Shown here piece after piece: positions 3,501-64,000 of a DNA stretch of 64,000 nucleotides. The first letter of the stretch is position 1; every line of letters begins with the position of its first letter. Source of the DNA: Lycocorax pyrrhopterus obiensis (lineage: Eukaryota; Chordata; Aves; Passeriformes; Paradisaeidae); assembly GCA_014706295.1 (NCBI GenBank), contig JACSVZ010000004.1, positions 92,134,048 to 92,198,047 of the forward strand, in the 5' to 3' direction. The notes beneath the pieces were generated by a model. The model was not told the origin of the DNA, searched no databases, and worked only from the letters and a program-made list of their open reading frames with translations. The position numbers and the translations under genes are program-made.

Positions 3501-3525
3501 AACGACTGAACTTCACAGAATTAAC
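501..3525. other. AT-rich stretch without a recognised gene
   Basis: No coding exon, RNA gene or familiar repeat is seen. There are short homopolymer T runs near 1010-1026 and an (ATT)-rich patch near 1506-1525. The open frames at 1239-1496 and 3132-3353 have no domain, no family resemblance and ordinary AT-rich composition, and are treated as chance frames. Confidence 0.6.
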
Positions 3526-4152
3526 TGTCTTGGGGTGACTTTGTGATGTGTATCCCCTATCACTGCTCTATGCCCAGAAATCAATCCTGTGCCTTTCTGT
3601 GCCTTTAAACTGAGCCCGAGACGGGGGAGAGAGAAAAAACCAAATGAACTTTTCAGAACAGTTTTTCAAGGACACAGATGCACACTCCTCTGCGTTCCAC
3701 TGCAGCAGCGAGAAGCACGGAGGAAGCACCCTTCTTGCTTTTCAGCCAGCTTTTGGCTCCTTTTCTCTGGAGGGAGACGGAGAGTTGAACTTTGTTTTCC
3801 TGAGACTCCGGCTTTTCCCTTCTTCTCTTCTGGACTGTTTCAACAACATCAGAACACATCAGGAGAATTTTCCACCAAGGCCCTGGAGGTGGGCCCATGA
3901 CCAGCTCTGAGGAGAAAAGAGAGACCGCACCTACAGAAAGGACTCTGAAATCTTCCCAGGTTTCTCTCCACAGTGAGAGGTTTGATTATTCAGTATCATT
4001 ACTCTTTTCCTGTGTATTTGTTAAATAAATAGTTTTTTATCTCTTTCACTTTCCTCCAAGGATTTTTTTTTCCTGAACCTGGTGTGGGAGGGGTGGTTGT
4101 AACCTGCCTTTTATTAGAGGACATTTTCCTTCAAATTTGTCCAAACCGCACA
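3526..4152 (+). mobile_element. Solo LTR, family A (copy 1)
   Basis: This 627-bp block begins TGTCTTGGGGTGACTTTGTG and ends near GCACA. The inverse complement of 40711-41307 is a clearly homologous copy with the same start, the same polyadenylation hexamer context (AATAAA at 4024-4029) and the same GGGGTGGTTGTAACCTGCC block close to the 3' end. The TG...CA ends, length, AATAAA position and absence of internal viral sequence fit a solo LTR left by recombination between two LTRs. A TTAAC lies directly upstream (3521-3525) and again at 4156-4160, 3 bp beyond the proposed end, so a 5-bp target duplication is possible but not clean. Small open frames inside it are not genes. Confidence 0.7.
4024..4029 (+). 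terminator. Polyadenylation hexamer of family A LTR
   Basis: AATAAA lies inside the solo LTR about 125 bp before its 3' end, and the same hexamer is conserved in the minus-strand copy (40838-40843). This is where the R region of the LTR would end. Confidence 0.55.
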
Positions 4153-7169: not shown

Positions 7170-7830
7170 TCACCATTTGACCATATCCACTCGGGTTTTG
7201 AATATCTCCAAGGTGTGTTTCCATTTTTGCCCATGCCCTTTGTCATGCCAGTGGGCACACCTGTTGTATAATGTATTTAAAACCCTGTTGGTATGCACTA
7301 GCCAAACTCTCACTCAAAACCAGGTTCCACACCAGGATCCAATTATTAATTAAGACCACGTCAACATATAGTACTCATTAACCTCCTACAAGCAGCTGTG
7401 GCTGCAGGGCGGGCACAAGCCCTATAAATCAAGCCCTGGGAGGAGTCAAAGGTGGAGTTGGTTGTTCCTGGTCGTTGAGGGTTGTGGTTGCTCAACTCAG
7501 CTCTGCCCTGAGAAACTGTAATCCAAGAATCAGAAGACTGTGAGCTCCGGCACACACCCTGAGAATGGGCTGGTTTCTGCTTCATCCCCTTCTATCAGGT
7601 ACTTACACACATCTGTGAGATACCCTGACTCCTCTTCAACAAGTCCCAGCTTTCATACTTTCCTCACAGAGCAGATACTTCAGTCCTTCCATCACCTTTG
7701 TGGCTCTGTGCTGGACACACATTATGAAGTCTGTATGTTCCTTGTACCACAGAGCACAGAACTGGACACAGCACTCCAGATGTGAAGGGGAGGGCTGTCT
7801 GTGCATGTACAATTTCAGGTTTTTCACATA
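7170..7830 (-). mobile_element. Old antisense CR1 split by an LTR insertion
   Basis: The left part (about 7170-7261) reads as antisense CR1 3' sequence: 'gggttttgaatatctccaa' and 'cccatgccctttgtcatgcc' followed by 'agtgggcacacc'. The right part (7553-7830) resumes exactly where CR1 should continue: 'gggctggtttctgcttcatcc', 'aggtacttacacac', 'actggacacagcactccag'. The two halves flank the family B LTR and share the 6-bp CACACC at the junctions, so the LTR jumped into a CR1 that was already there. Both halves are truncated and diverged. Confidence 0.75.
7262..7554 (+). mobile_element. Solo LTR, family B (copy 1)
   Basis: A TGTTGTATAATG...CCGGCA(CA) block is repeated at 13030-13294 and 39282-39587. 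A TATA-type box (TATAAAT, 7423-7429) sits in the same place as in copy 3. The target duplication is CACACC (7256-7261 and 7553-7558). To make it adjacent, the LTR must end at 7552, two bases short of the ...GGCACA end of the other copies, which is easily explained by loss of one CA in a CA run. A 6-bp duplication is typical of class II (beta/alpha-like, ERVK-type) retroviruses. No internal viral sequence is attached. Confidence 0.8.
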
Positions 7831-13029: not shown

Positions 13030-13294
13030 TGTTGTATAATGTATTTAAACCCTGTTGGTATGCACTAGCCAAACTTTCACTCAAGACCAGGATCCACACC
13101 TGGATCCGATTATTGGCTCATTAACCTCCTACAAACAGCTGTGGCTGCAGGGCGGGCACTACCCCTATGAATCAAGCCCTGGGAGGAGCCGAAAAAGGAG
13201 GTGGTTGTTCCTGGTTGCTGTGTGCTGTGTGTTGCTGGAGCTCTGCACTGAGAAATTATAATCCAAGAATCAGAAGACTGCGAGCTCTGGCACA
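13030..13294 (+). mobile_element. Solo LTR, family B (copy 2)
   Basis: Same start (TGTTGTATAATG) and same GGCACA end as the other two family B copies. It is flanked by a perfect 6-bp duplication TGTCAT (13024-13029 and 13295-13300). At 265 bp it is the shortest copy: it lacks part of the 'ccaggatcc' segment that is expanded in copy 3, and its TATA-type box is changed to TATGAAT (13166-13172). The end points are precise because TG/CA termini and target duplication agree. Confidence 0.87.
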
Positions 13295-31640: not shown

Positions 31641-31645
31641 ATTAG
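31641..31645. repeat. Target-site duplication of the provirus (left copy)
   Basis: ATTAG is found here and again at 37321-37325, immediately outside the two LTRs. A 5-bp duplication is usual for ERVL-like and some other retroviruses. It shows that both ends belong to one insertion that has not been rearranged since. Confidence 0.9.
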
Positions 31646-31761
31646 TGTAAGGGACGGCCCGAAGACCCTTCCCCGAAGACCCTTCACCTGCTTCACGATC
31701 ATCTACAGAAAGCAAGACGCTGAGCCTGGGCCTGGCCGAGGTGGAAAGCTAGCCAAACACA

Positions 31762-31896
31762 GCTGTGCTGGTCCTGCTGTTATCACAACAAGAACAGCAC
31801 GGGACATGCCGGAATTGGTACACATGCCTGAGTGCGGTTTGCGGTGAGCTATGCCGGTCCTGCTGTTACCACAACAAGAACAGCACGGGATATGCT
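31762..31896 (+). repeat. U3 direct repeat pair (about 49 bp each)
   Basis: The block containing 'ggtcctgctgttatcacaac' (31762-31810) recurs at 31848-31896 with only a few changes, separated by 37 bp. Duplicated U3 segments are a common form of retroviral enhancer. The same pair is present in the 3' LTR. Confidence 0.85.
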
Positions 31897-32016
31897 GTCT
31901 GTTACCTGTTCTGTACCATTAACTTGAGACAATGGGCCTTGATCCCCCACTTCTTGGCTAGCTGCCCCTCGCTTCAAACACCTGTTGGCCAGTTGCCCCT
32001 CGCTTTCAAAAAAGAC

Positions 32017-32023
32017 TATTAAA
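32017..32023 (+). promoter_or_regulatory. Candidate TATA box of the 5' LTR
   Basis: TATTAAA lies downstream of the duplicated U3 blocks and about 165 bp before the polyadenylation hexamer, a normal order for U3-R. The transcription start would be about 25-30 bp further right. Confidence is moderate because the box is not a perfect TATAAA. Confidence 0.5.
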
Positions 32024-32185
32024 GGACTCTCTGAGAAGACCCCAGTTGAGATCTCCCCACGGAAGACGACGGATCAAGAGGACTCCGTCTGGCCGTTGGT
32101 AGCTATAACCCCCCTTTTCTCTCCCTCTATCCTTTGTTTCCTTACATCTCTCTCCCTCTATCGCAATTACACCGCGTTGGTACGC

Positions 32186-32191
32186 AATAAA
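32186..32191 (+). terminator. Polyadenylation hexamer in 5' LTR
   Basis: AATAAA, followed after a short distance by a T- and GT-rich stretch (ending in 'ccgttggtgttgctttt'), a normal cleavage context. The same signal is at 37203-37208 in the 3' LTR, where it would end the viral transcript. Confidence 0.75.
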
Positions 32192-32309
32192 ATACACTGT
32201 GCTGATTGAAATTTACACTTCTCCCCGTTGGTGTTGCTTTTGCACTCTGAGATTCGGGTAACGAACCATCACGACCCCCGCTCGTCTCGAGCGGATCGTG
32301 ACATTAAAT

Positions 32310-32327
32310 TGGCGTAGTCGGCAGGAT
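32310..32327 (+). other. Primer binding site for tRNA-Ser
   Basis: TGGCGTAGTCGGCAGGAT begins six bases after the 5' LTR. Its complement ends in CGACTACGCCA, which matches the 3' end of the vertebrate serine tRNA (AGA/UGA-type) acceptor and T-arm plus CCA. Reverse transcription of this lineage would therefore be primed by serine tRNA, as in the ERV-S group. The match was judged from knowledge of the tRNA, not from a search. Confidence 0.85.
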
Positions 32328-32771
32328 TCTTATTGAGACAGAAGGGGTAGCGGGGCTCTGTGCAATCTGTAACAGGGGAAGGACGTTTCACTCCAGCCGC
32401 ACCTAGCCCGACACCCGAAAGGGTGAGCGGTGTCTAGAAAGCAAGGGGGGTGACTCGAATTTCCCGCAAATTGTACATTCCCAAAAGAATGCACCCCACA
32501 CTCAATTGAGGGCTCTGTCTTCAGAAATCCACAAAAGTATCTCTTAGTGCAAAAGGGGGAGTGTTTGTGTTTTTACTAAAGAAGGTGTGTAGGAGTTTTT
32601 GGTCTGCTTGGTGTAGCGAAGGGGCAACTATTAGAAACTAAAAGTGTACCTCCCAGGCAGATTTTGGCCTCTTCACCCACTCAGGGAAGTGAAGGGAGAC
32701 ACAGCTAAGATCGGTGTGTGTTGAGTAACTAAGTTATTACCTCCCTGTAGTGGTTTTTGTCCCTTCATAAA
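32328..32771 (+). other. Viral leader, untranslated
   Basis: The region between primer site and gag, where packaging signals and the splice donor are expected. GGGTGAGC (GT at 32423-32424) is the best-looking donor candidate for a spliced env message. No packaging structure can be asserted from reading alone. Confidence 0.5.
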
Positions 32772-33221
32772 ATGAATGAAAACCTCAGTGCAAAACACAA
32801 ATCTGCACTTTATGCTCTATTAGCAAAACACAGCGCCAGACCCTCTCCTGGAGGGGAAGAATGGGCACAAAACAACTGGTTCAATTTAGAGAGTGTAACT
32901 GATAGAATATGCTCTTTGCAACATGAAGCAAGATTTAAACCCGGCCGCAATAAATCCATAACCTGCTCCGTCTTAGGAGCCTGTCTTGCGGCTGCTACAG
33001 ATCATCGCCGTAAGCGGTGTACTGAAGAAAAAGCAATAATAGATTCCCTTCAAAACCTAGTAGAAATTCTACAAAAACAATTAGATGAAAAAACAAATGA
33101 AATTAATTTGCTGCAAGCTGCCTTGAGAGACGAATATCTTAAGAACTCAAGGAATGCTGATTTGGCAAGAGAAACGGAGGAAAAAGAACCCTCCACATTA
33201 ACCAAATTTACCCCCAAATAG
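32772..33221 (+). pseudogene. gag, N-terminal part (broken)
   Basis: The first ATG of the viral region is at 32772; an upstream TTG at 32757 is not needed. The frame runs about 149 codons. Residues around 90-125 are rich in charged and leucine or isoleucine residues in heptad-like spacing, consistent with the coiled coil often found at the start of ERV Gag proteins. The frame ends at TAG 33219-33221. The adjacent reading frame becomes free of stops from 33161 and carries the rest of gag, so a single-base shift between about 33161 and 33218 separates the two parts. In an intact virus this protein would form the inner shell; here it is truncated. Assignment rests on position and composition. 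Confidence 0.7.
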
Positions 33222-34972
33222 AATTAATCCTGGCAAAAAACTGTGCAGAAAATTGTTGTCCTCACATAAGACCCTTAACTAAAACTGAATACTTTTATGC
33301 CAATGATGAGGACTCTGAACCGCACATTACCACTAAACAAACTCCATTTACTGCTACTGAATTGGCCAAATTGAAAAAAGAGTATGGACGTCTCCCCCAT
33401 GAATCTGAAACGGAATATGTTTTCCGAGTGTCCCTTACTGGGGGAGACCAATTTCAGCTAACTGAGCAAGAAGCCAGTGGATACTGGGGACATGGAGTGT
33501 TCTTAACAACCGGTGACAAGCTTTCTGCGTGGTCCCTAACTCAGCGTGCTGCTTATTGGGCTGGGGGACTCAACCCTCTAGAAAGGGGAGACCCCTTAGC
33601 TATAGTCACTGCTCCTGACCAGCTCTTAGAGAGCGTCCACAAAGCTGCTTGCTTGCAAATGATACATGAAAGAAAATTAATTCCTAACTGTGAGTCTCCA
33701 ATGCAATTACCTGTAAAACCAGAAATGATAACCCCTTTAATTCGGGGACTCCCAGAATCTCTCAAACCTACAGCAATTGTTCTTCAAAAAACTATAGCAG
33801 CTATAAGTCCAGTAGATAGGCTGGACAGATTCCTTGGAAACCCCAGCGACCAAACTGGATCTACTGATCCCGGGTTTAAAGCAGTTTCTAACCGGCATTG
33901 CCCGAGACCCACCCTACCGAATCCACCCGTTCAACCTAGTGCACCCCTCCTCCCTCAGAACCTGGGCAGTGAACCGAACCAACTTCTCCCTCAACATTCG
34001 AGCAATGAACCAAAACAATTTCTTCCCCAGAATCCGGGCAGTGAGCCAAACCAACTTCTCCCTCAGAATTCAGGCAAGGTAGCTGAATTAACAACATCGA
34101 TTCAAGAAAAGGCTCACCCAATCATGACATGCATCCCACCTGATACCCTAACCTCTTTAGGTCAAGTTAAAATACCTGAATCCAGGAAAGATCCCCAACA
34201 TGCTTTAGGATTGTTAGTGTTTTGGAGAAAACACATCCCAGATTTTTCCATGGTTGCCAGACCTCTTTATAACTTGATGAGAAAACGGGTAAAATGGGAA
34301 TGGACTGCTTCTCAGGAAAAAGCATTGCAATTGTTGATTTTTGAAGCAACAGCTCACCAAGCCCTGGGCCCTATTCATCCTACAGACCCTTTCCAGGTGG
34401 AATGGGGATTTGCCTTCTCGGGGTTGTCAGTACACATATGGCAGTGGGGTCCTGAGGGTCCTACGAGGCCTGTTGATTTTTATTCCCGTGGCTTCAAAGA
34501 TGCTGAAAAAAGATACACTACCTGGGAAAAAGGATTGTTTGTGGTTAGCTCAGCTCTCATAGAAGTGGAGAAGATTGCACGACAACAACCAATTGTTTGG
34601 AGAGGCCCTTTTAAAGTTGTTGAAACAGTTTCTGCTGGGACTCCCCCACCTGACGGGCTGGCCCAGAGGGCCTCAGTAAGAAAGTGGTATGCTCAGATTG
34701 AACATTATTGTAATGTTTTCTCAATCACTGAAGGTGCTGTGAAAAATCTGGCAGTACAAAGAACTGAAGGCTTGGGTAACAGCCAAGACAAACCTGCCTC
34801 AGTCATTAAAGTAGCTGTTTGGAGTGTTTTCCAACGTGAGACACAGAATGCTTCTCTTGTTTTTATCTACACCTATTCCTATGCTGTGTTTACTAGATAT
34901 GCATGGGTAGCCTTTGATGCCCTTGGGAGAGAGCATCGGACACACACACGCTGGACAATTCCATCATTTTAA
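33161..34972 (+). pseudogene. gag capsid region fused in frame to pol C-terminal remnant
   Basis: An open frame of 603 codons without stops (33161 to the TAA at 34970-34972). It has no ATG at its left edge and needs the gag frame before it. Up to about 33890 it is capsid-like. Then comes a proline/glutamine-rich linker made of four 12-residue repeats (33947-34078). From about 34130 it switches to reverse transcriptase: 'LGLLVFWRKHIPDF' followed by 'RPLYNLM' and 'WEWT' is the thumb/connection segment that follows the polymerase core. 'GFKDAEKRYTTWEKG' belongs to the start of RNase H. Near 34867 an RNase H 'YTDS'-type motif reads YTYS, so a catalytic aspartate is lost. Nucleocapsid, protease, the polymerase fingers and palm and integrase are missing. 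The deletion kept the frame, making a capsid-pol chimera that cannot be enzymatic. Confidence 0.8.
33947..34078 (+). repeat. 36-bp coding minisatellite in gag
   Basis: Three full units (33947-33982, 33983-34018, 34019-34054) and a partial fourth (34055-34078), each coding for 12 residues with a LLPQ...EPNQ pattern. The units differ at several bases, so they predate this insertion. The linker lies between capsid-like sequence and the pol remnant. Confidence 0.9.
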
Positions 34973-35002
34973 TCTTCTGCCTCTTGGCGGCAGGCTCTGT
35001 TG

Positions 35003-35018
35003 TGTTTGCTTTTCACAG
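35003..35018 (+). promoter_or_regulatory. Candidate env splice acceptor
   Basis: A pyrimidine-rich run ends TTTGCTTTTCACAG, with the AG at 35017-35018, 35 bp before the proposed env start. This is a good match to an acceptor consensus and is in the right place for a singly spliced env message. Confidence 0.5.
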
Positions 35019-35052
35019 AAGAACTCCGAGGGACATGAAGACCACATGAACC

Positions 35053-36410
35053 ATGATGAAACTGGTGATACTTTTTGCATCCTACCACAGCACCATGGCC
35101 AAAAACCAGCTGAGTGGCCGTGGTCTGACCGTAGTCACATACCATAGTATAAGTACTCCCCCTGTGTTGAATGACAAGAATAATGTTTTCCCTCCCTTTA
35201 TAATAACAAAAGGTAATGATGTTACAATATGATGCAGATTAATTGCTGAATCTTTTACTGAATCTATACACAGCTATAGCATTGGACCTGACGGCCGTGT
35301 TTTGTTTTGTGTAATTCAAATCAAGATTATTGGCTAAATTTAACTGCTGTACAATTTTCTCATAAAGTTATGTGTGGTAAAAACAATACAAAATACTGGG
35401 GGGAACTCGAAATTTATGTAGTGACACCTACTACCCAACCACCGGTTATGCTAAGCCCAAGAATTTTTAAAATCAGACCATATATAATCAGGAAAACAGG
35501 CCAACAACAAATCTGGTATGGTCTCTCAAACAAGTCAAATTGCTGATGCAAAACCATGTCTCAGAAATTCAGTCAGCTTGTTCACCCTTCCTGCAAACTT
35601 CTTTCAAAGGGTGGACAACCTGGTTACAGAAGTGAAACTCTTTTGAGAAATGAATCCAAAGAGACATAACCGGTGTTGTGGGAGCAAGATTGGGAATTTT
35701 GAATAGCATTGATTCAGAAGTGCTGATGAACAAATTGCCTGCCACAACTAAAGATCTAACCAAATTACAACAACCACTGCAGTCGTCATTATTGGCTCTG
35801 GGAGCCCAGCAGTGGCTGTTATCAAACATATTACCAAATTGGGAAAAGGTAAATGTTAATGGTCACAAATTGATAATTGCCACTGATTTTGAAAGAGAAT
35901 TCCAATCGTGGTGGAACCTAGTGAATTTTACCTATAACCCTGCCACAAACACAGTTACAGCCTTTGTGCTAACCATATGCAATGCTTCAGTGCATTCAAT
36001 ATTCCCTGTCATTGCACTAGGGCTGAATCATGATGGAGCTATTCTCTATCCTTTTGAGCATAGGGAATGGGCCCATCAAATTGGTGAAAAATGGCAAAAT
36101 GTTAATTTGGAAACTTGTATTGTCCGAACAACAAAGATTCATCTGTGAAAGCATTGCAATAAGAGCCCAAGATATTTGTTTAGACACCGATCAAAATATT
36201 TGTCATTTTGAAACCCATCCAAACAAAAATCCTGAAACAGTGCTTGTGTACATAAGTAATAGATGTGTATGCTTAAGAATTGCTTGTGATAGTGTATTTA
36301 TAGAAAATTTAGTAGTAAATACAAAAAATCATTCAAATTTTTGTGTTTGTAATTTTACTAAAATCACAAGATGTAATTTCTCTTATTCAGCCCAGTTAAC
36401 CTTACTTTAG
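35053..36410 (+). pseudogene. env remnant (broken in several frames)
   Basis: Paired ATGs at 35053 and 35056 open a frame whose first residues are hydrophobic, as in a signal peptide. An in-frame TGA interrupts it at 35230-35232. The surface-subunit remnant then continues in another frame (35307-35546) with N-glycosylation triplets such as NLT and NNT. From 35654 a third frame carries a glycine/alanine-rich start and then 'LGILNSIDSEVL', which looks like the fusion-peptide end of a transmembrane subunit. It appears shortened near 35872. After another shift near 36115-36145 the last frame (to 36410) is cysteine-rich with CVC and CNFT motifs. No membrane anchor is visible after it. An intact protein would bind and fuse with the cell membrane; this copy cannot. 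Other class III ERVs often lack env altogether. Confidence 0.72.
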
Positions 36411-36660
36411 TAAAGCAATTGTTGCTTAAGCAAATAAGAAATCAGATATGTATTTTAAGAAATTGATTGTGTGCCTTAATCAAACCAACTGTGTAACCGA
36501 AATAATTAATTTTCTTTTGCACCCTTTTCTTTTTTTTTTTCTTTCCTTCCTTTTCTCCCCTTCCTTATTTTCCGGGTTCCGCTACCAATGCCGGCGAGTC
36601 CCGAAGACTTCAACAGAAGAAGCTGAGTGTTCCTGATGACGATCGTGAATCAAGGGGTGG
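36411..36660 (+). other. Region between env remnant and 3' LTR, with polypurine tract
   Basis: It starts AT-rich, then has a long pyrimidine run (about 36516-36570), then a GC-richer tail. The last bases before the LTR (AAGGGGTGG, 36652-36660) are the polypurine tract that would prime plus-strand DNA synthesis, although interrupted by one T. Confidence 0.7.
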
Positions 36661-37320
36661 TGTAAGGGACGGCCCGAAGACCCTTCCCCGAAGACCCTTC
36701 ACCTGCTTCACGATCATCTACAGAAAGCGAGACGCTGAGCCTGGGCCTGGCCGAGGTGGAAAGCTAGCCAAACACAGCTGTGCTGGTCCTGCTGTTATCA
36801 CAACAAGAACAGCACGGGACATGCCGGAATTGGTACACATGCCTGAGTGCGGTTTACGGTGAGCTATGCCGGTCCTGCTGTTACCACAACAAGAACAGCA
36901 CGGGATATGCTGTCTGTTACCTGTTCTGTACCATTAACTTGAGACAATGGGCCTTGATCCCCCACTTCTTGGCTAGCTGCCCCTCGCTTCAAACACCTGT
37001 TGGCCAGTTGCCCCTCGCTTTCAAAAAAGACTATTAAAGGACTCTCTGAGAAGACCCCAGTTGAGATCTCCCCACGGAAGACGACGGATCAAGAGGACTC
37101 CGTCTGGCCGTTGGTAGCTATAACCCCCCTTTTCTCTCCCTCTATCCTTTGTTTCCTTACATCTCTCTCCCTCTCTATCGCAATTACACCGCGTTGGTAC
37201 GCAATAAAATACACTGTGCTGATTGAAATTTACACTTCTCCCCGTTGGTGTTTCTTTTGCACTCTGAGATTCGGGTAACGAACCATCACGACCCCCGCTC
37301 GTCTCGAGCGGATCGTGACA
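36661..37320 (+). repeat. 3' LTR of the provirus (660 bp)
   Basis: Same ends as the 5' LTR (TGTAAGGG...GATCGTGACA). It is longer by one CT in a pyrimidine run and differs at only three other bases when the copies are read side by side. TATTAAA is at 37032-37038 and AATAAA at 37203-37208. It is followed immediately by the right copy of the ATTAG duplication. Confidence 0.96.
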
Positions 37321-37325
37321 ATTAG
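37321..37325. repeat. Target-site duplication of the provirus (right copy)
   Basis: ATTAG matches 31641-31645 exactly. Confidence 0.9.
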
Positions 37326-39281: not shown

Positions 39282-39587
39282 TGTTGTATAATGTATTTAA
39301 ACCCTGTTGGTATGCACTAGCCAAACTCTCACTCAAGACCAGGATCCACACACCAGGATCCAGTTAGACCAGGATCCACACATCAGGATCCAATTATTGG
39401 CACATTAACCTCCCACAAACAGCTGTGGCTGCAGGGCGGGCATTAGCCCTATAAATCAAGCCCTGGGAGGAGCCAAAGGTCAAGAGCTGCTGAGCTGCTT
39501 GTTCCTGGTTGCTGTGTGCTGCACGTGCTGGAGCTCTGCGCTGAGAAATTATAATCCAAGGATCAGAAGACTGTGAGCTCCGGCACA
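39282..39587 (+). mobile_element. Solo LTR, family B (copy 3)
   Basis: A 306-bp copy with the same TGTTGTATAATG start and GGCACA end, and TATAAAT at 39450-39456. It is flanked by a perfect 6-bp duplication GTCACA (39276-39281 and 39588-39593). Its extra length comes from a 30-bp internal tandem duplication of the 'agaccaggatccacaca' segment (39336-39365 and 39366-39395). Confidence 0.9.
39336..39395 (+). repeat. 30-bp tandem duplication inside family B copy 3
   Basis: Two adjacent units starting AGACCAGGATCCACACA, differing at only two positions. Copies 1 and 2 have a single unit, so the duplication is specific to this copy or its close relatives. Confidence 0.88.
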
Positions 39588-40710: not shown

Positions 40711-41307
40711 TGTCCTGGTTTGAGACAATTTTGGAGGAAAATACCGTCTGAGAGAAGGCAGGTTACAACCACCCCTCCCCCACCACAGGTTCGGGGAAAA
40801 AAAATTTCCTCGGAGGAAAGTGAAGAAAAACCCTCTGTTTATTTAACAAACACACAGGAACAGAATTATGCTAAATAATAAAACCTCTCGCTGTGGAGAG
40901 AACCTGGTAAAAGTCCTTCAGTAGGTGTGGTTGTTCTCTCTCCAGGCTGTGGCATGGGCCTCCTGGAGCTGGTGATCCGGACCAGAGCAGAGCAGTCCAA
41001 GGGAAGTTCTTGCCCCAGCTAGTGAGCTGGCTAAACAGCAAAGAAGTTTAACTCTGTCTCTCTCCTGAGAAAAAGCCGAAAAACTCGGAAAAAAAAAAAA
41101 GGAAGGGTGCTTCCTGCGTTCTTGCTGCTGTAGAAGCACACAGAGAAGTAGCAGTGACCTTGGAGGACAAAACTGCTTTGAAAAGTTCACCTGGCTTTTT
41201 TTTTTCTTCCTCTCACACCCAGTTTTAAAGACACAGAAAGGCACAGGAATCATGTCTGGGCATAGAGCAGTGATAGGGGATACACATCATAAAGTCACCC
41301 CAAGACA
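40711..41307 (-). mobile_element. Solo LTR, family A (copy 2)
   Basis: The reverse complement of this 597-bp block starts TGTCTTGGGGTGACTTTATG and ends CAAACCAGGACA, matching the plus-strand copy at 3526-4152 throughout, with moderate divergence. Its polyadenylation hexamer is at 40838-40843 on the minus strand. No convincing target duplication flanks it. The frame 40918-41253 on the minus strand is a shadow of the LTR and corresponds to the frame at 3589-3900 in copy 1. Confidence 0.78.
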
Positions 41308-44300
41308 GCTGGCATGGAAGAAAAAGCAACGAAAATGTGGAAGTAATTTAGAATTCAAATACAGGACTGGGAATGCAGGTGAAATAAGGCCTGAAAAAAC
41401 CCCAACCATTAATTTCTTCATGAAGGTGAGAGGAGTCACAGAAAGCAATTGCATAAATATATTTTCATAAATAAATTGCTATCATGGAGACATTTAACTA
41501 CCTTCAATTAAGTCAGGAAGAACAAGTTATCAGATAATGCCACAGAAGTTTGCAGATCATTGCATTCCTAAGAAGAATAAAGCTTCTGAAAGATCCTTCT
41601 TTAATTTCTCAAAGCAAGAAAAAGTAAGAATATAAAATATTTCAATCAGATTTTTGTGTTATTGAGTTAAACATCGAGCTTTGATGAATCTTTAGGCTCT
41701 GCATGGGATCAGATTTTAATGGGCCTCAATAGCCCAAGAGTGAAAGAATGGCAGTAGAATAGGTTGATGTAAGGCACTAAACCGTAGTGGATTAGAAGCC
41801 AGAGCAGTTCACTCAGCCCAGATTGCATGTTCTGGCAAGGTAAAAGGGAGGATTGCACTGAAGAACAGAAAATCAGGCTCCCACACAGCCATTTACTCCA
41901 GTGAGTGCACATAATACTAACATCTTAGCCTTTTTGGCAAGAGACAAGTACCAGAGTAGATGTGGAATAAACCACCATTTCAGTGTCCTGCCTTTAACTG
42001 GAACTGCTGTTTGAACTAGAATGCCAAAGAAGCAAAGCTAAGTTTTTTGCAGAGAGAAAGCAGCACAGCCCAGAACAGCCACAGGCTGCATAAAGATGGC
42101 AGCAGCAATCAAGGATGGTTTTGATCACCAGGAATGATTTTAGATGCATCAACATCAATAGCACTTCTTCACAGAATTTGTTCGGGAAACTTTCAAGGTT
42201 GGATCTATCTCACCTAATTTTAGGCTTATACTTGCTAGATCACTGAGATGGTTCCCCCAAGTTACCCAGGCAGTGCTGGAGAAACACTTAATCCTAAAAA
42301 CATAATTCATTTGACTCCTTCTAAATAACTGTTCTATGAAAATATGAACTCCACCTTAGAAATTAATTTCTTCCCATCTTTGCCTCAGCTGCAAAAGTCC
42401 ATATGAATCACTCAGATGTAGCTTAGGTAAGTTGTACAACATTAGTTAAATGTATTCTAAGTCAGGAATCACAAGCACTTAAGAAGACAGAAACAAAAGA
42501 CATATATAAAGAAAACAAAAATGCACTGAATAAAAAGAATTCAAATGAAAGAAATTTAAAGCCTAAAATATATAAAGATAATACCATGACAAAGAAGAAA
42601 TCAGAATCTTAAGCTCTCTGTGAAAATGCATTGCCCAAGAAGAATTGTCCAATTTGTGCTGCAATTTTTGCATAGGTTTATTTATACTGAAGAAATAGTT
42701 ATACCCTGCTTCTGGATTATTATTCCCATTATTACATTAGTTTGCTTCAGAAACCTGAAACAAGAAAGCCAGTCTGCACTGTTGATATCTAGACTAGACA
42801 AGGATTCTAGCTTTGACAATGACAGGAAAGAAATCACAAGTAATTGTTAAGAACTTAAATATCTCGCCAAAGAGAACGGTTTTAAGTACATTGTTTGTGC
42901 CTGTATCAGCAAGTAGGAATCAGATTCATAAGGAACATCTTGGTGCTTAGGACCCTACACTCACCCTATAATCCTCCCAAAGTGCTCTTATGTGAAAGCG
43001 TTGTAACTGCTACACAGATTTTGAAGGAAAATATAAGTTCAGGCCAGCTGCTATAGACTACATCTGCTGGATCATTCATCTTGCATGCTCTTTATATAAT
43101 ATTGAGGATGAAAGGTGCTGTCATACATCTAGCAGTGATCAGGCATTTGTGTTGATAATACGTAGATGGTAGTACACATATACTCTGCAGGTATCAAAAG
43201 AAAAGTGAAGGCTTCCATCTTTCATGAACGATATCTTCATGATTGAAAGGTGATCTTGAATTACTAAGGCTATTTTCTGCTACCTGCTACAGAACAACTT
43301 AACTCTGAGCTTCTAAGCAAACAGCTGAGGCTGTCATCCCTGCCGGGCACCAGCAGGAAACCGAGTGAGTGCGCAGTGTGCTGGTGAAGACTGAGAGCAA
43401 AGAAAGGTGTGAGCAGCTGCCTGCGACTAACAAGAGCAGCTTGATTTTGTTAATAACAACTTAATGATTAAAGGAGATTCTAAAAAATTCTGGTTGTGAT
43501 CTGTGTTTCCACCTAGTTCAATCACTTGCCAGAGAAGGAAGCTTAAAATGGTCCGTCCAGCCTACTTTTAGCTATCTCAGAGTGACTCTCTAGAATCTCT
43601 GCAAACACCAGATGTATCAACCAAACACCAAATGTATCAACTTCTAAAGAGTTTCATGCCTCTGGTACTTACGTGTCTTTTCTCCTTTGACTACCAAAAT
43701 GGCTTGGATAGGCCTGGAATAAATACCAAGCTTTTAGAAGGTTCAGGATGAAACAGGATGAAACCTTGCCAAAATAACACGTTATGTCAAAATAATATGT
43801 AAAACCCTTTCAGAGACGTTGCTTTTCCTGCAGCAAAGACGTGTTCATCACACATATAAGAATTATATCTGAAAATGACTTCTTAGGGAGTTACTTATCT
43901 TAGAAGATTTGGCACTTCCCTGCACACTGATAAAGAACAAAGGAAGAGTTTTTTAAAGGCAAATCCCATTGTGAAACAGTTAATGCTCTAAAATTGAAAA
44001 TCCTGAGCACCCCAAACTTTTTAGCTGTACATAATCCTCAACGAATGAACCAATTTAGAGAATAACATTTCCGTTACATTTTAAAAGAAATGACTACATC
44101 TCTGGATTTTAAAATTCTTTTGACTAATAAGAGATACCATGCAACCATGAACATAGTCCAAATCATCAAGTGAAACATTCACATCAGCTTATACTCACTC
44201 ACCTTTGAATACTGAACATGCTTTGAACCTTCCAACTTTATACATTGACGTGAAAATTTGCATCTCTTAGTAGTTCCAGTGGAATGTAACATTAAAAGGT

Positions 44301-62570: not shown

Positions 62571-63009
62571 TGTGCATGATAAAGAGGCTTCAAAAAGAAA
62601 CAGAGATGTCTTTTCAAATTACATTTAGGTAAGAAAACAGAAAGGTATGTGCATAAAGCATTTATTTTAAATCAACTGATAGGAAAACTTAAAAGCTTTC
62701 CCTTCTCTCCCCTAAGAGTAGAAATATATGCCTACTAATAAAGTAGTATGTTAAGGACCAGGACGAACTTCTTTGCTTCAGGATCAGCTTCAACATTGCT
62801 ACCACTGGACTGCAAGAAGCTCTCCCAAAACGCATAGTCAGGGTCACACACCATGGTTAGGAACTTGGATGGGAGCTAAAGATGCACGGAAGAGTAAAAC
62901 CTCATGGTAATGTCTAGGATTGGGGACTTTTCCTGGCCAGGTGTTACACAATGCCAAGGGTACAAAAAATACTCGAGGGATGTCAAACTACTCTTGGTTT
63001 TGATTCATA
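62571..63009. other. Transition to the CpG island, no feature recognised
   Basis: AT-rich sequence without an exon or known repeat. Composition changes sharply just after 63010. Confidence 0.55.
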
Positions 63010-63342
63010 GATCAGCGAGCCAGGGCCATGTGCTTTACTGCGCGCTGGGGGCCGTGCGCGGCTGTCGCTTATGACCCAACACGAGGCGCAAGTGCCCGCT
63101 ACAAGCGCGGACAAGGCGAGGGGGGCTACTTTCGGAGTGGCAACAAACACCCTGTCTCCCACAGGCCGCCACGTCGCCCACTGTCCCTCAGCAGCTCCCT
63201 GCCCCTCCGGAGGGGCGCGGGAGGCCGGAGCCCCCGCCCGCCTTTGCCCCGCGGGGCGGCGCGGGCGGGCCGAGCGGAGCCGTGCGGTGTCGGGGAGGAG
63301 CGCGGCAGCGCTCGCAGGAGCACCCAGAGCTCGGCTGTCGGG

Positions 63343-63411
63343 ATGCGGCCGCAGAGGGGAGGGGAGCGGGAGCGGCGGCACCTTCCCCCGGCGAAGAGCC
63401 AAGTTAAATAG
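63343..63411 (+). other. Possible short upstream open frame
   Basis: An ATG at 63343 opens a 22-codon frame that closes at TAG 63409-63411, upstream of the candidate main start. If transcription begins to its left on the plus strand, it would act as an upstream frame. Confidence 0.25.
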
Positions 63412-63648
63412 CCAGCGCCACGCCACCGCCTTCCTCTCCCCTCCCGGCTCCGAGCCCTCGGCGAACACCCCCGTCCCACCCTGCCCCGCCCGGGCCGCGG
63501 GCGGCGGAGCGCAGCGCGGAGTCAGTCTGCCCCGCGGAGCCGGGACGCCGGCACCGCCGGGAGAGGCGGGCGCTTGGGAGTCGGTGCCGGAGGCGCCGCG
63601 TCCCGCCGAGCCGCCCGTGTGAGGACTACGCCAGCTGCATGGGAGGAG

Positions 63649-64000
63649 ATGAGCGTGGCGGGGAAGCAGCCTCCTCCAGCACCGCTCGAGCGGCCCGGCA
63701 GCCTCCTCGTCCCCACCTGGGCAAGTACCGCTCTCGCCTCGGCCCGTCCCGGTGCCAACTCCCGCGGCGGGGCGGGGGCGGGGAGGGTCCCGCCGGCGGC
63801 GCTGCCCGGAGGGCGGGAGGGAGGCGCCTGCTTGCGGGACCGGGAGCGGAGCGGGGCGGTGCGGTGCGGGCTCGGGCTGCCGGCGGGGCTCTCGCAGCGA
63901 CGCGGCGGCAGCTGCCGGGGCTCCCCGGGCGGGACGGCCCATCCCGCCTCCCTCCCGCGGCCGGGCGGCGCCGGGGCCCGAGCGCGGCCGGGCGGGACGT
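63649..64000 (+). CDS. Candidate 5' coding exon, open at window edge
   Basis: I do not recognise this protein. The ATG at 63649 has a G at position -3 and opens a frame with no stop up to the right edge (117 codons). Its first residues read MSVAGKQPPPAPLERPG. The neighbouring ATG at 63639, in another frame, has a weaker context. A GCAAGT at 63720-63725 could be a rare GC-type splice donor ending a short exon, and beyond it the translation looks random (Gly/Ala/Arg-rich). Absence of stops in such GC-rich DNA is weak evidence, so this is a hypothesis only. Confidence 0.25.
   Translation, partial: MSVAGKQPPPAPLERPGSLLVPTWASTALASARPGANSRGGAGAGRVPPAALPGGREGGACLRDRERSGAVRCGLGLPAGLSQRRGGSCRGSPGGTAHPASLPRPGGAGARARPGGT

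What the first reader, a model, noticed from the sequence alone, without database searches (positions are those of the whole stretch)
31646..37320. A young provirus with a dead interior: evidence for copying in trans
The two LTRs differ by only three substitutions and one 2-bp indel over about 658 bp, and the 5-bp target duplication is perfect, so the insertion is recent. If the lineage's neutral rate were near 2 per billion sites per year, about one million years would follow; the rate is an assumption. Yet the interior lacks the polymerase core, protease, nucleocapsid and recognisable integrase, and has several frameshifts and stops in gag and env. So much damage is unlikely to have built up after insertion, while the LTRs changed so little. 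The simplest reading is that the master copy was already defective and was packaged and reverse-transcribed by proteins from a related intact virus.
Basis: partly seen in the sequence, partly recalled or inferred. Interest (0 to 1): 0.75.

Follow-up and report, generated by a model that had tools for sequence, protein, structure and literature searches.

The report
Defective songbird provirus copied in trans
A young retroviral insertion in a songbird genome was already missing most of its enzyme genes when it landed, so it was most likely carried in by proteins from an intact relative; this is a known kind of genomic parasite, with one odd detail, that its five big gag-pol deletions all keep the reading frame.

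Summary
Two LTRs (31646-32303 and 36661-37320) differ by 3 substitutions and one CT unit, with a perfect 5-bp duplication (ATTAG). At the published zebra finch rate this gives about 1.1 My (0.2-3.3). Protein matches place it in songbirds, in a class III (ERVL-like) family that has an env; the nearest gags are Aphelocoma and Malurus.

Comparison with relatives corrects the anatomy. Gag has one frame change and no stop. Five deletions remove a gag part, protease, RT core, part of RNase H and nearly all integrase, yet all five junctions stay in frame, leaving a 603-codon gag-pol remnant that ends at pol's own stop. Env is broken: 3 stops, 3-4 frame changes, a 50-residue in-frame loss.

About 2.7 kb is lost where about 10-30 bp is expected since insertion, and env stops are in excess (P=0.002). 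Damage therefore mostly precedes insertion, and mobilisation in trans is the best reading. Swallow, and zebra finch/sparrow, relatives include defective families whose copies share breakpoints, but 0 of 150 proteins share this copy's junctions. Its own genome could not be searched, so the deciding test stays open. Ordinary in kind.

The parts
31641..31645 (+). 5' copy of target-site duplication, ATTAG
31646..32303 (+). 5' LTR, TG...CA, with TATTAAA at 32017 and AATAAA at 32186
32310..32325 (+). primer-binding site beginning TGG, looks complementary to the 3' end of tRNA-Ser (tRNA sequence recalled)
   Evidence: sequence; tRNA match recalled, not tested
32772..33195 (+). gag N-terminal part (frame 3), intact start, 68-76% identical to four relatives
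33188..33200 (+). the single frame change in gag
33161..34972 (+). 603-codon open frame: rest of gag fused in frame to pol remnants, ending at pol's own stop
33878..33890 (+). deletion junction 1 inside gag, about 103 residues missing against P0032
34043..34085 (+). deletion junction 2, gag proline-rich repeats joined to an RT scrap (protease and RT N-terminal part missing)
34120..34130 (+). deletion junction 3, RT palm missing (about 124 residues against P0038)
34124..34816 (+). RT connection/RNase-H-like remnant, 83% identical to P0037, PF17919
34817..34826 (+). deletion junction 4 inside RNase H (55 residues missing)
34885..34900 (+). deletion junction 5, RNase H joined to the last 25 residues of integrase (about 341 residues missing)
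35046..36433 (+). env remnant: stops at 35230, 35633, 35651; frame changes near 35315, 35515, 36120, 36398 (the last with a loss of about 21 residues)
35876..35882 (+). in-frame loss of 50 residues in the env transmembrane part
   Evidence: P0001, P0002
36652..36660 (+). short purine-rich tract abutting the 3' LTR (AAGGGGTGG)
36661..37320 (+). 3' LTR
37321..37325 (+). 3' copy of target-site duplication, ATTAG

Best explanation
This is a recent germline insertion of an already defective class III (ERVL-like) songbird retrovirus. The master copy had lost protease, RT core, most of RNase H and integrase, and a working env. It kept the cis parts that matter: promoter-bearing LTRs, primer-binding site, purine tract and LTR ends. 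Its RNA was packaged, reverse-transcribed and integrated by proteins of a related intact virus in the same cell. Shown: anatomy, lesions, young LTR pair, integrase-type insertion, existence of relatives with complete pol, and of deleted relatives with shared breakpoints in other songbirds. Inferred: that the lesions were in the RNA template, and that the helper was present in this species.
For: LTR pair 3 substitutions apart with a perfect 5-bp duplication, about 1.1 My (0.23-3.3) at 2.0e-9. A second clock agrees: a frame of 603 codons with no stop or frameshift has about 1% chance after 10 My of neutral decay. Seven deletions (five in gag-pol, two in env, the last of them weaker) totalling about 2.7 kb against 10-29 bp expected. 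Three env stops, P=0.0017 post-insertion. Relatives with protease, RT, RNase H and integrase domains exist (P0063; without protease P0039). Deleted families with shared breakpoints exist in the same virus family: 6 of the 9 Hirundo proteins listed share one junction and lie on six contigs of different length; seven entries from Taeniopygia (4), Junco, Zonotrichia and one Logan contig share another.
Against: No protein among 150 shares any of this copy's junctions. Its gag frame change is not shared: of the 5 proteins found with the gag N-terminal part only P0146 spans the site, and it keeps the frame, as do P0032, P0042 and P0026. So it may be a low-copy or single lineage. The host genome could not be searched. 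Relatives were compared as proteins only, so junctions carry a few bases of uncertainty.
Confidence: 0.82

Rival explanations
1. Dead on arrival in one step: an intact virus was packaged, and reverse transcriptase made the deletions while copying the RNA that integrated. No defective master and no help in trans needed.
For: Template switching readily makes internal deletions (recalled); no shared junctions were found in 150 proteins.
Against: Seven deletions plus three stops and three further frame changes in env are too many for one round of copying; adjacent junctions may be one event, which would lower the number. Lesions are unequal: env has three stops, the gag-pol remnant none.
Confidence: 0.1
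2. The insertion is old and decayed in place; the LTRs look young because gene conversion made them alike.
For: LTR identity alone cannot exclude conversion.
Against: The 603-codon frame is open through 1.8 kb; the chance of no stop and no frameshift is 10% at 5 My and 1% at 10 My. The 5-bp duplication is perfect. CpG o/e is 0.73-0.75 in the LTRs against 0.13-0.17 in the flanks, as in young DNA.
Confidence: 0.04
3. Chimera or assembly artefact joining pieces of several proviruses.
For: Repeats are hard to assemble; raw reads are not available here.
Against: Both flanks share ATTAG, the order gag-pol-env is kept, the gag-pol frame is open across five junctions, and the window holds no N.
Confidence: 0.03
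4. LINE (CR1) machinery copied a retroviral transcript, as with processed HERV-W copies.
For: Needs no retroviral enzyme.
Against: Both LTRs are complete (658 and 660 bp, the same ends) with TG...CA and a 5-bp duplication, which is integrase work; processed copies lack U3 at the 5' end and U5 at the 3' end (recalled).
Confidence: 0.01

Closest known systems
Songbird ERVL families such as TguERVL2_I / TguERVL2_I_Ucy (PMC6523648, passages read)
   Same: 5-bp duplication class, gag and pol ORFs in one reading frame, recently active in songbirds
   Different: The published consensus has protease, RT, RNase H and integrase domains, and its authors do not claim an intact env; this copy has lost those enzymes and carries an env remnant. 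Sequence membership not tested (no consensus at hand).
Deleted gag-pol family of the barn swallow (P0026, P0031, P0034, P0066, P0074, P0105)
   Same: Same virus family; protease and RT N-terminal part deleted, long in-frame fusion; six contigs; in 4 of 6 RNase H is joined to the end of integrase
   Different: Different breakpoints: keeps RT from GYKHS on (YIDD in 5 of 6, YTDD in P0074) and more of the integrase end
Deleted family of zebra finch, junco and white-throated sparrow (P0027, P0043, P0061, P0075, P0101, P0108, and Logan P0045)
   Same: Gag joined in frame to the RT connection part
   Different: Different gag and RT breakpoints
Mammalian non-autonomous ERVs (IAP deletion types, ETn with MusD, VL30; recalled)
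   Same: Defective LTR element with good cis parts moved by a relative's proteins
   Different: Different virus classes and hosts; there copy families and helpers are known from experiment (recalled)

Membership tests
Non-autonomous LTR retroelement mobilised in trans | Complete LTRs, primer-binding site, target duplication | tested here: met
   (that the primer site fits tRNA-Ser is recalled)
Non-autonomous LTR retroelement mobilised in trans | Lacks enzymes needed for its own copying | tested here: met
   no RVT_1, protease or rve in six open frames; no YIDD or DTGA in any + frame; integrase match limited to the last 25 residues
Non-autonomous LTR retroelement mobilised in trans | Other copies share the same breakpoints | tested here: inconclusive
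   0 of 150 related proteins; host genome not searchable
Non-autonomous LTR retroelement mobilised in trans | Intact helper of the same family in the same host | tested here: inconclusive
   pol with protease, RT, RNase H and integrase domains in a Logan contig (P0063); RT, RNase H and integrase core in Hirundo (P0039); host species unknown
Class III (ERVL/spuma-like) endogenous retrovirus | 5-bp target duplication | tested here: met
   ATTAG both sides
Class III (ERVL/spuma-like) endogenous retrovirus | Pol closest to foamy/ERVL pol | tested here: met
   12 solved sequences matched; the best five are named Pr125Pol (three), Peptidase A9/RT/RNase H and Protease/RT/RNase H, read as foamy virus from recall; the other seven, weaker, include RT/RNase H p80, Gag-Pol and Ty3 entries
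Class III (ERVL/spuma-like) endogenous retrovirus | Mammalian ERVL lack env (recalled) | tested here: not met
   env remnant 35046-36433 with homologues in bird data; so class III-like, not ERVL in the strict mammalian sense
TguERVL2 | Sequence identity to the published consensus | not testable with these tools
   consensus not held

The most novel reading that the evidence does not exclude
The defective lineage was under selection to keep one open gag-pol remnant while it lost its enzymes and env. Five of five gag-pol deletion junctions are in frame (chance 0.004, or 0.037 if they were three events) and no stop lies in 603 codons, while env in the same copy has three stops. A long frame may protect the RNA from nonsense-mediated decay, or its truncated Gag fusion may still join helper particles and help, or interfere with, the helper. 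Swallow and finch relatives also appear as in-frame fusions, though a protein databank favours such cases.
Probability: 0.2. Interest if true: 0.6.

Novelty: new member of a known kind. Interest (0 to 1): 0.35.

Why it matters
It is a dated case of a retroviral parasite of a retrovirus in songbirds. Relatives in swallow, zebra finch and sparrows show that such deleted lineages arise repeatedly in one virus family with different breakpoints. If the in-frame pattern holds up in whole genomes, it would make a testable rule about which defective proviruses can still spread.

Tried and rejected
Search of the host genome for the LTR: the same request was sent 14 times and never answered. IMG/VR scan with the gag-pol remnant: nothing. 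PHROGs: one weak match to env (E 0.0017, unknown function), not used. Rfam (gathering scores) and tRNA scans of the window: none. PDB with the gag core or with env relative P0001: none. Ten host open frames scanned with Pfam: one weak match (E 0.065), no convincing gene.

Considered and dropped: 'lack of nucleocapsid' as damage (0 of 150 relatives have a CCHC knuckle); frame changes as proof of age mismatch (not in excess); shared descent of the env frame change near 36120 with P0001, since the closer P0003 and P0004 keep the frame; CpG loss in env as a sign of a germline master, since no DNA of relatives was at hand.

Limits: relatives are proteins only; the word-based search scored 7,993 candidates and listed 120 of 219, so 'of 150' counts what the three searches listed. 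Species of the window unknown. I chose 40 relatives of 150 by hand for the tree; P0112 was dropped as short, so 39 stood beside the window. P0108 was added to the shared-junction set by eye, as the pattern search missed it (one residue differs). The stop at 35230 rests on one relative at 44% identity; with only the other two stops P is 0.018. Of the seven losses, the one near 36398 coincides with a frame change and is the weakest. One search printed the right-hand duplication one base too late (TTAGG); one search shows ATTAG at 37321-37325.

Full report
What is there. The LTRs lie at 31646-32303 and 36661-37320 and differ by three substitutions and one CT unit; ATTAG flanks both ends. The 5' LTR is followed by a primer-binding site beginning TGG at 32310, and the 3' LTR is preceded by AAGGGGTGG. 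That the site fits a tRNA-Ser is recalled. The window has no N.

Host and family. Env and gag-pol matches are birds in every listed row that bears a species name: one of 25 for env (Cyanistes), and for gag-pol Hirundo, Taeniopygia, Lonchura, Aphelocoma and many others (120 of 219 rows listed). In a tree of 40 gag cores the window falls in a well-supported set of 32 rows made up of songbird proteins, one unnamed Logan row and the window; it is nearest by path to Aphelocoma and Malurus, but its place within the set is unresolved. The RT remnant's best solved relatives are entries named Pr125Pol and protease/RT/RNase H, which I recall as foamy virus. With the 5-bp duplication this makes it class III, ERVL-like, though with an env.

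Anatomy against relatives. Protein-to-DNA matches give gag in frame 3 to about 33190, then frame 2: one frame change, no stop. From 33161 to 34972 one frame stays open across five deletion junctions: inside gag; gag to a scrap of RT; RT scrap to RT connection; inside RNase H; RNase H to the last 25 residues of integrase, ending at pol's own stop. Missing coding sequence, with two env losses, sums to about 892 residues, 2.7 kb; the gag-to-RT gap is counted only from the protease side, so this is a lower bound. Env (35046-36433) shows stops at 35230, 35633 and 35651, three frame changes plus a fourth that coincides with a loss of about 21 residues, and a 50-residue loss in frame. A stop at 35047 in the leader was not counted, because the env start is unclear.

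When did the damage occur? The zebra finch rate is 2.0e-9 per bp per year (PMC12047795, passages); the LTR pair gives 1.14 My, 95% interval 0.23-3.3. A study of bird repeats gives, on the chicken branch, 2.61% of bases deleted per 4.21% substituted in CR1 (PMC3342960, passages); scaled to this copy about 10 bp, at most about 29 bp, should be lost. That study speaks of small events, so large deletions may be undercounted, but hardly a hundredfold (my judgement). Env stops: three against 0.18 expected, P=0.0017; with two stops P=0.018. Frame changes are not in excess when the LTR's own indel is the yardstick. So the deletions and stops, not the frame changes, carry the argument.

Is the youth real? 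Gene conversion could fake LTR identity, but the 603-codon frame is a second clock: the chance of no stop and no frameshift is 63% at 1 My, 10% at 5 My and 1% at 10 My, taking 0.1 indels per substitution, 85% of them out of frame (assumptions).

Was help in trans needed? With no RT core, protease or integrase core, the RNA could not serve itself. A single faulty reverse transcription of an intact genome is the main way round, and the number and spread of lesions speak against it. The cis parts are all present.

Do such families exist? Yes, in this virus family. Of the nine Hirundo proteins listed, six (P0026, P0031, P0034, P0066, P0074, P0105) share the same gag-to-RT junction; they lie on contigs of six different lengths, and four of them share a second junction. 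The other three (P0039, P0059, P0080) do not show it; P0039 is a pol with its RT domain. Seven proteins from Taeniopygia (4), Junco, Zonotrichia and one Logan contig share another junction. In the gag tree three of the four Taeniopygia members (P0061 was not in the tree) and the Junco/Zonotrichia/Logan members fall in different clades, so the deleted part may have been recombined onto new gags, or the families are old. None of the 150 proteins has any of the window's junctions. A protein databank sees only open frames of suitable length, and the host genome was out of reach, so this does not decide copy number here.

The in-frame pattern. All five gag-pol junctions are in frame: chance 0.004, or 0.037 if adjacent junctions arose together as three events. 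Small lesions are spread unevenly, but weakly so: one frame change in gag-pol against four in env gives P 0.077, against three P 0.16. This hints that an open gag-pol remnant mattered while the lineage spread. It is one copy, so I hold it at 0.2.

Literature. Trans complementation of defective ERVs is established: PMC5029938 (passages) states that it needs no functional genes, only an intact LTR and borrowed proteins. Songbird ERVL activity is known (PMC6523648, passages). The rows listed by searches (15 of 26; 3 of 3; 15 of 81; 10 of 10; 12 of 55; 2 of 2) show, by title and abstract start, no paper on shared-breakpoint deleted ERVL families in swallow or finches. I read only passages of the papers named here and of PMC8310711, PMC5006616 and PMC8700633, so this is not a claim that none exists.

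Verdict. Observation right, mechanism probably right, details corrected, deciding test open. A new member of a known kind.

Noticed in passing
window 13030-13294, 39282-39587, 7262-7554: Three LTR-like repeats (TGTTG...GGCACA, 265-306 bp, about 80% alike). Two have perfect 6-bp duplications (TGTCAT; GTCACA), as in solo LTRs of the 6-bp class; the third has none that is clear.
   Followed up: partly
window 3525-4147 and 40717-41308: Inverted pair of a repeat, 72% identical over 650 columns.
   Followed up: no
window 63000-64000: GC rises to 0.68-0.86, a likely CpG island at a promoter.
   Followed up: no
P0043/P0027/P0061/P0075 against P0101/P0108/P0045: The same gag-to-RT deletion junction occurs with gags of two different tree clades in Taeniopygia and in Junco/Zonotrichia/Logan, as if the deleted segment had recombined onto new gags or the family were old (P0061 not in the tree).
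   Followed up: partly
window 36117-36127 and P0001: P0001 from another source ends env with the same out-of-frame tail as the window, though closer relatives keep the frame; a slippage hot spot is likely.
   Followed up: partly
window 35203-35410 and P0010: The env surface part of this lineage looks somewhat like an immunoglobulin V domain by eye (two spaced cysteines); Pfam gave no match for P0010.
   Followed up: no
window 31646-37320: CpG o/e is 0.73-0.75 in the LTRs, 0.45 in gag, 0.23 in pol remnant and env, 0.13-0.17 in the flanks.
   Followed up: partly
P0011 and P0021: Two env proteins from separate sources share another env deletion junction (NSIDSE joined to IAL).
   Followed up: no
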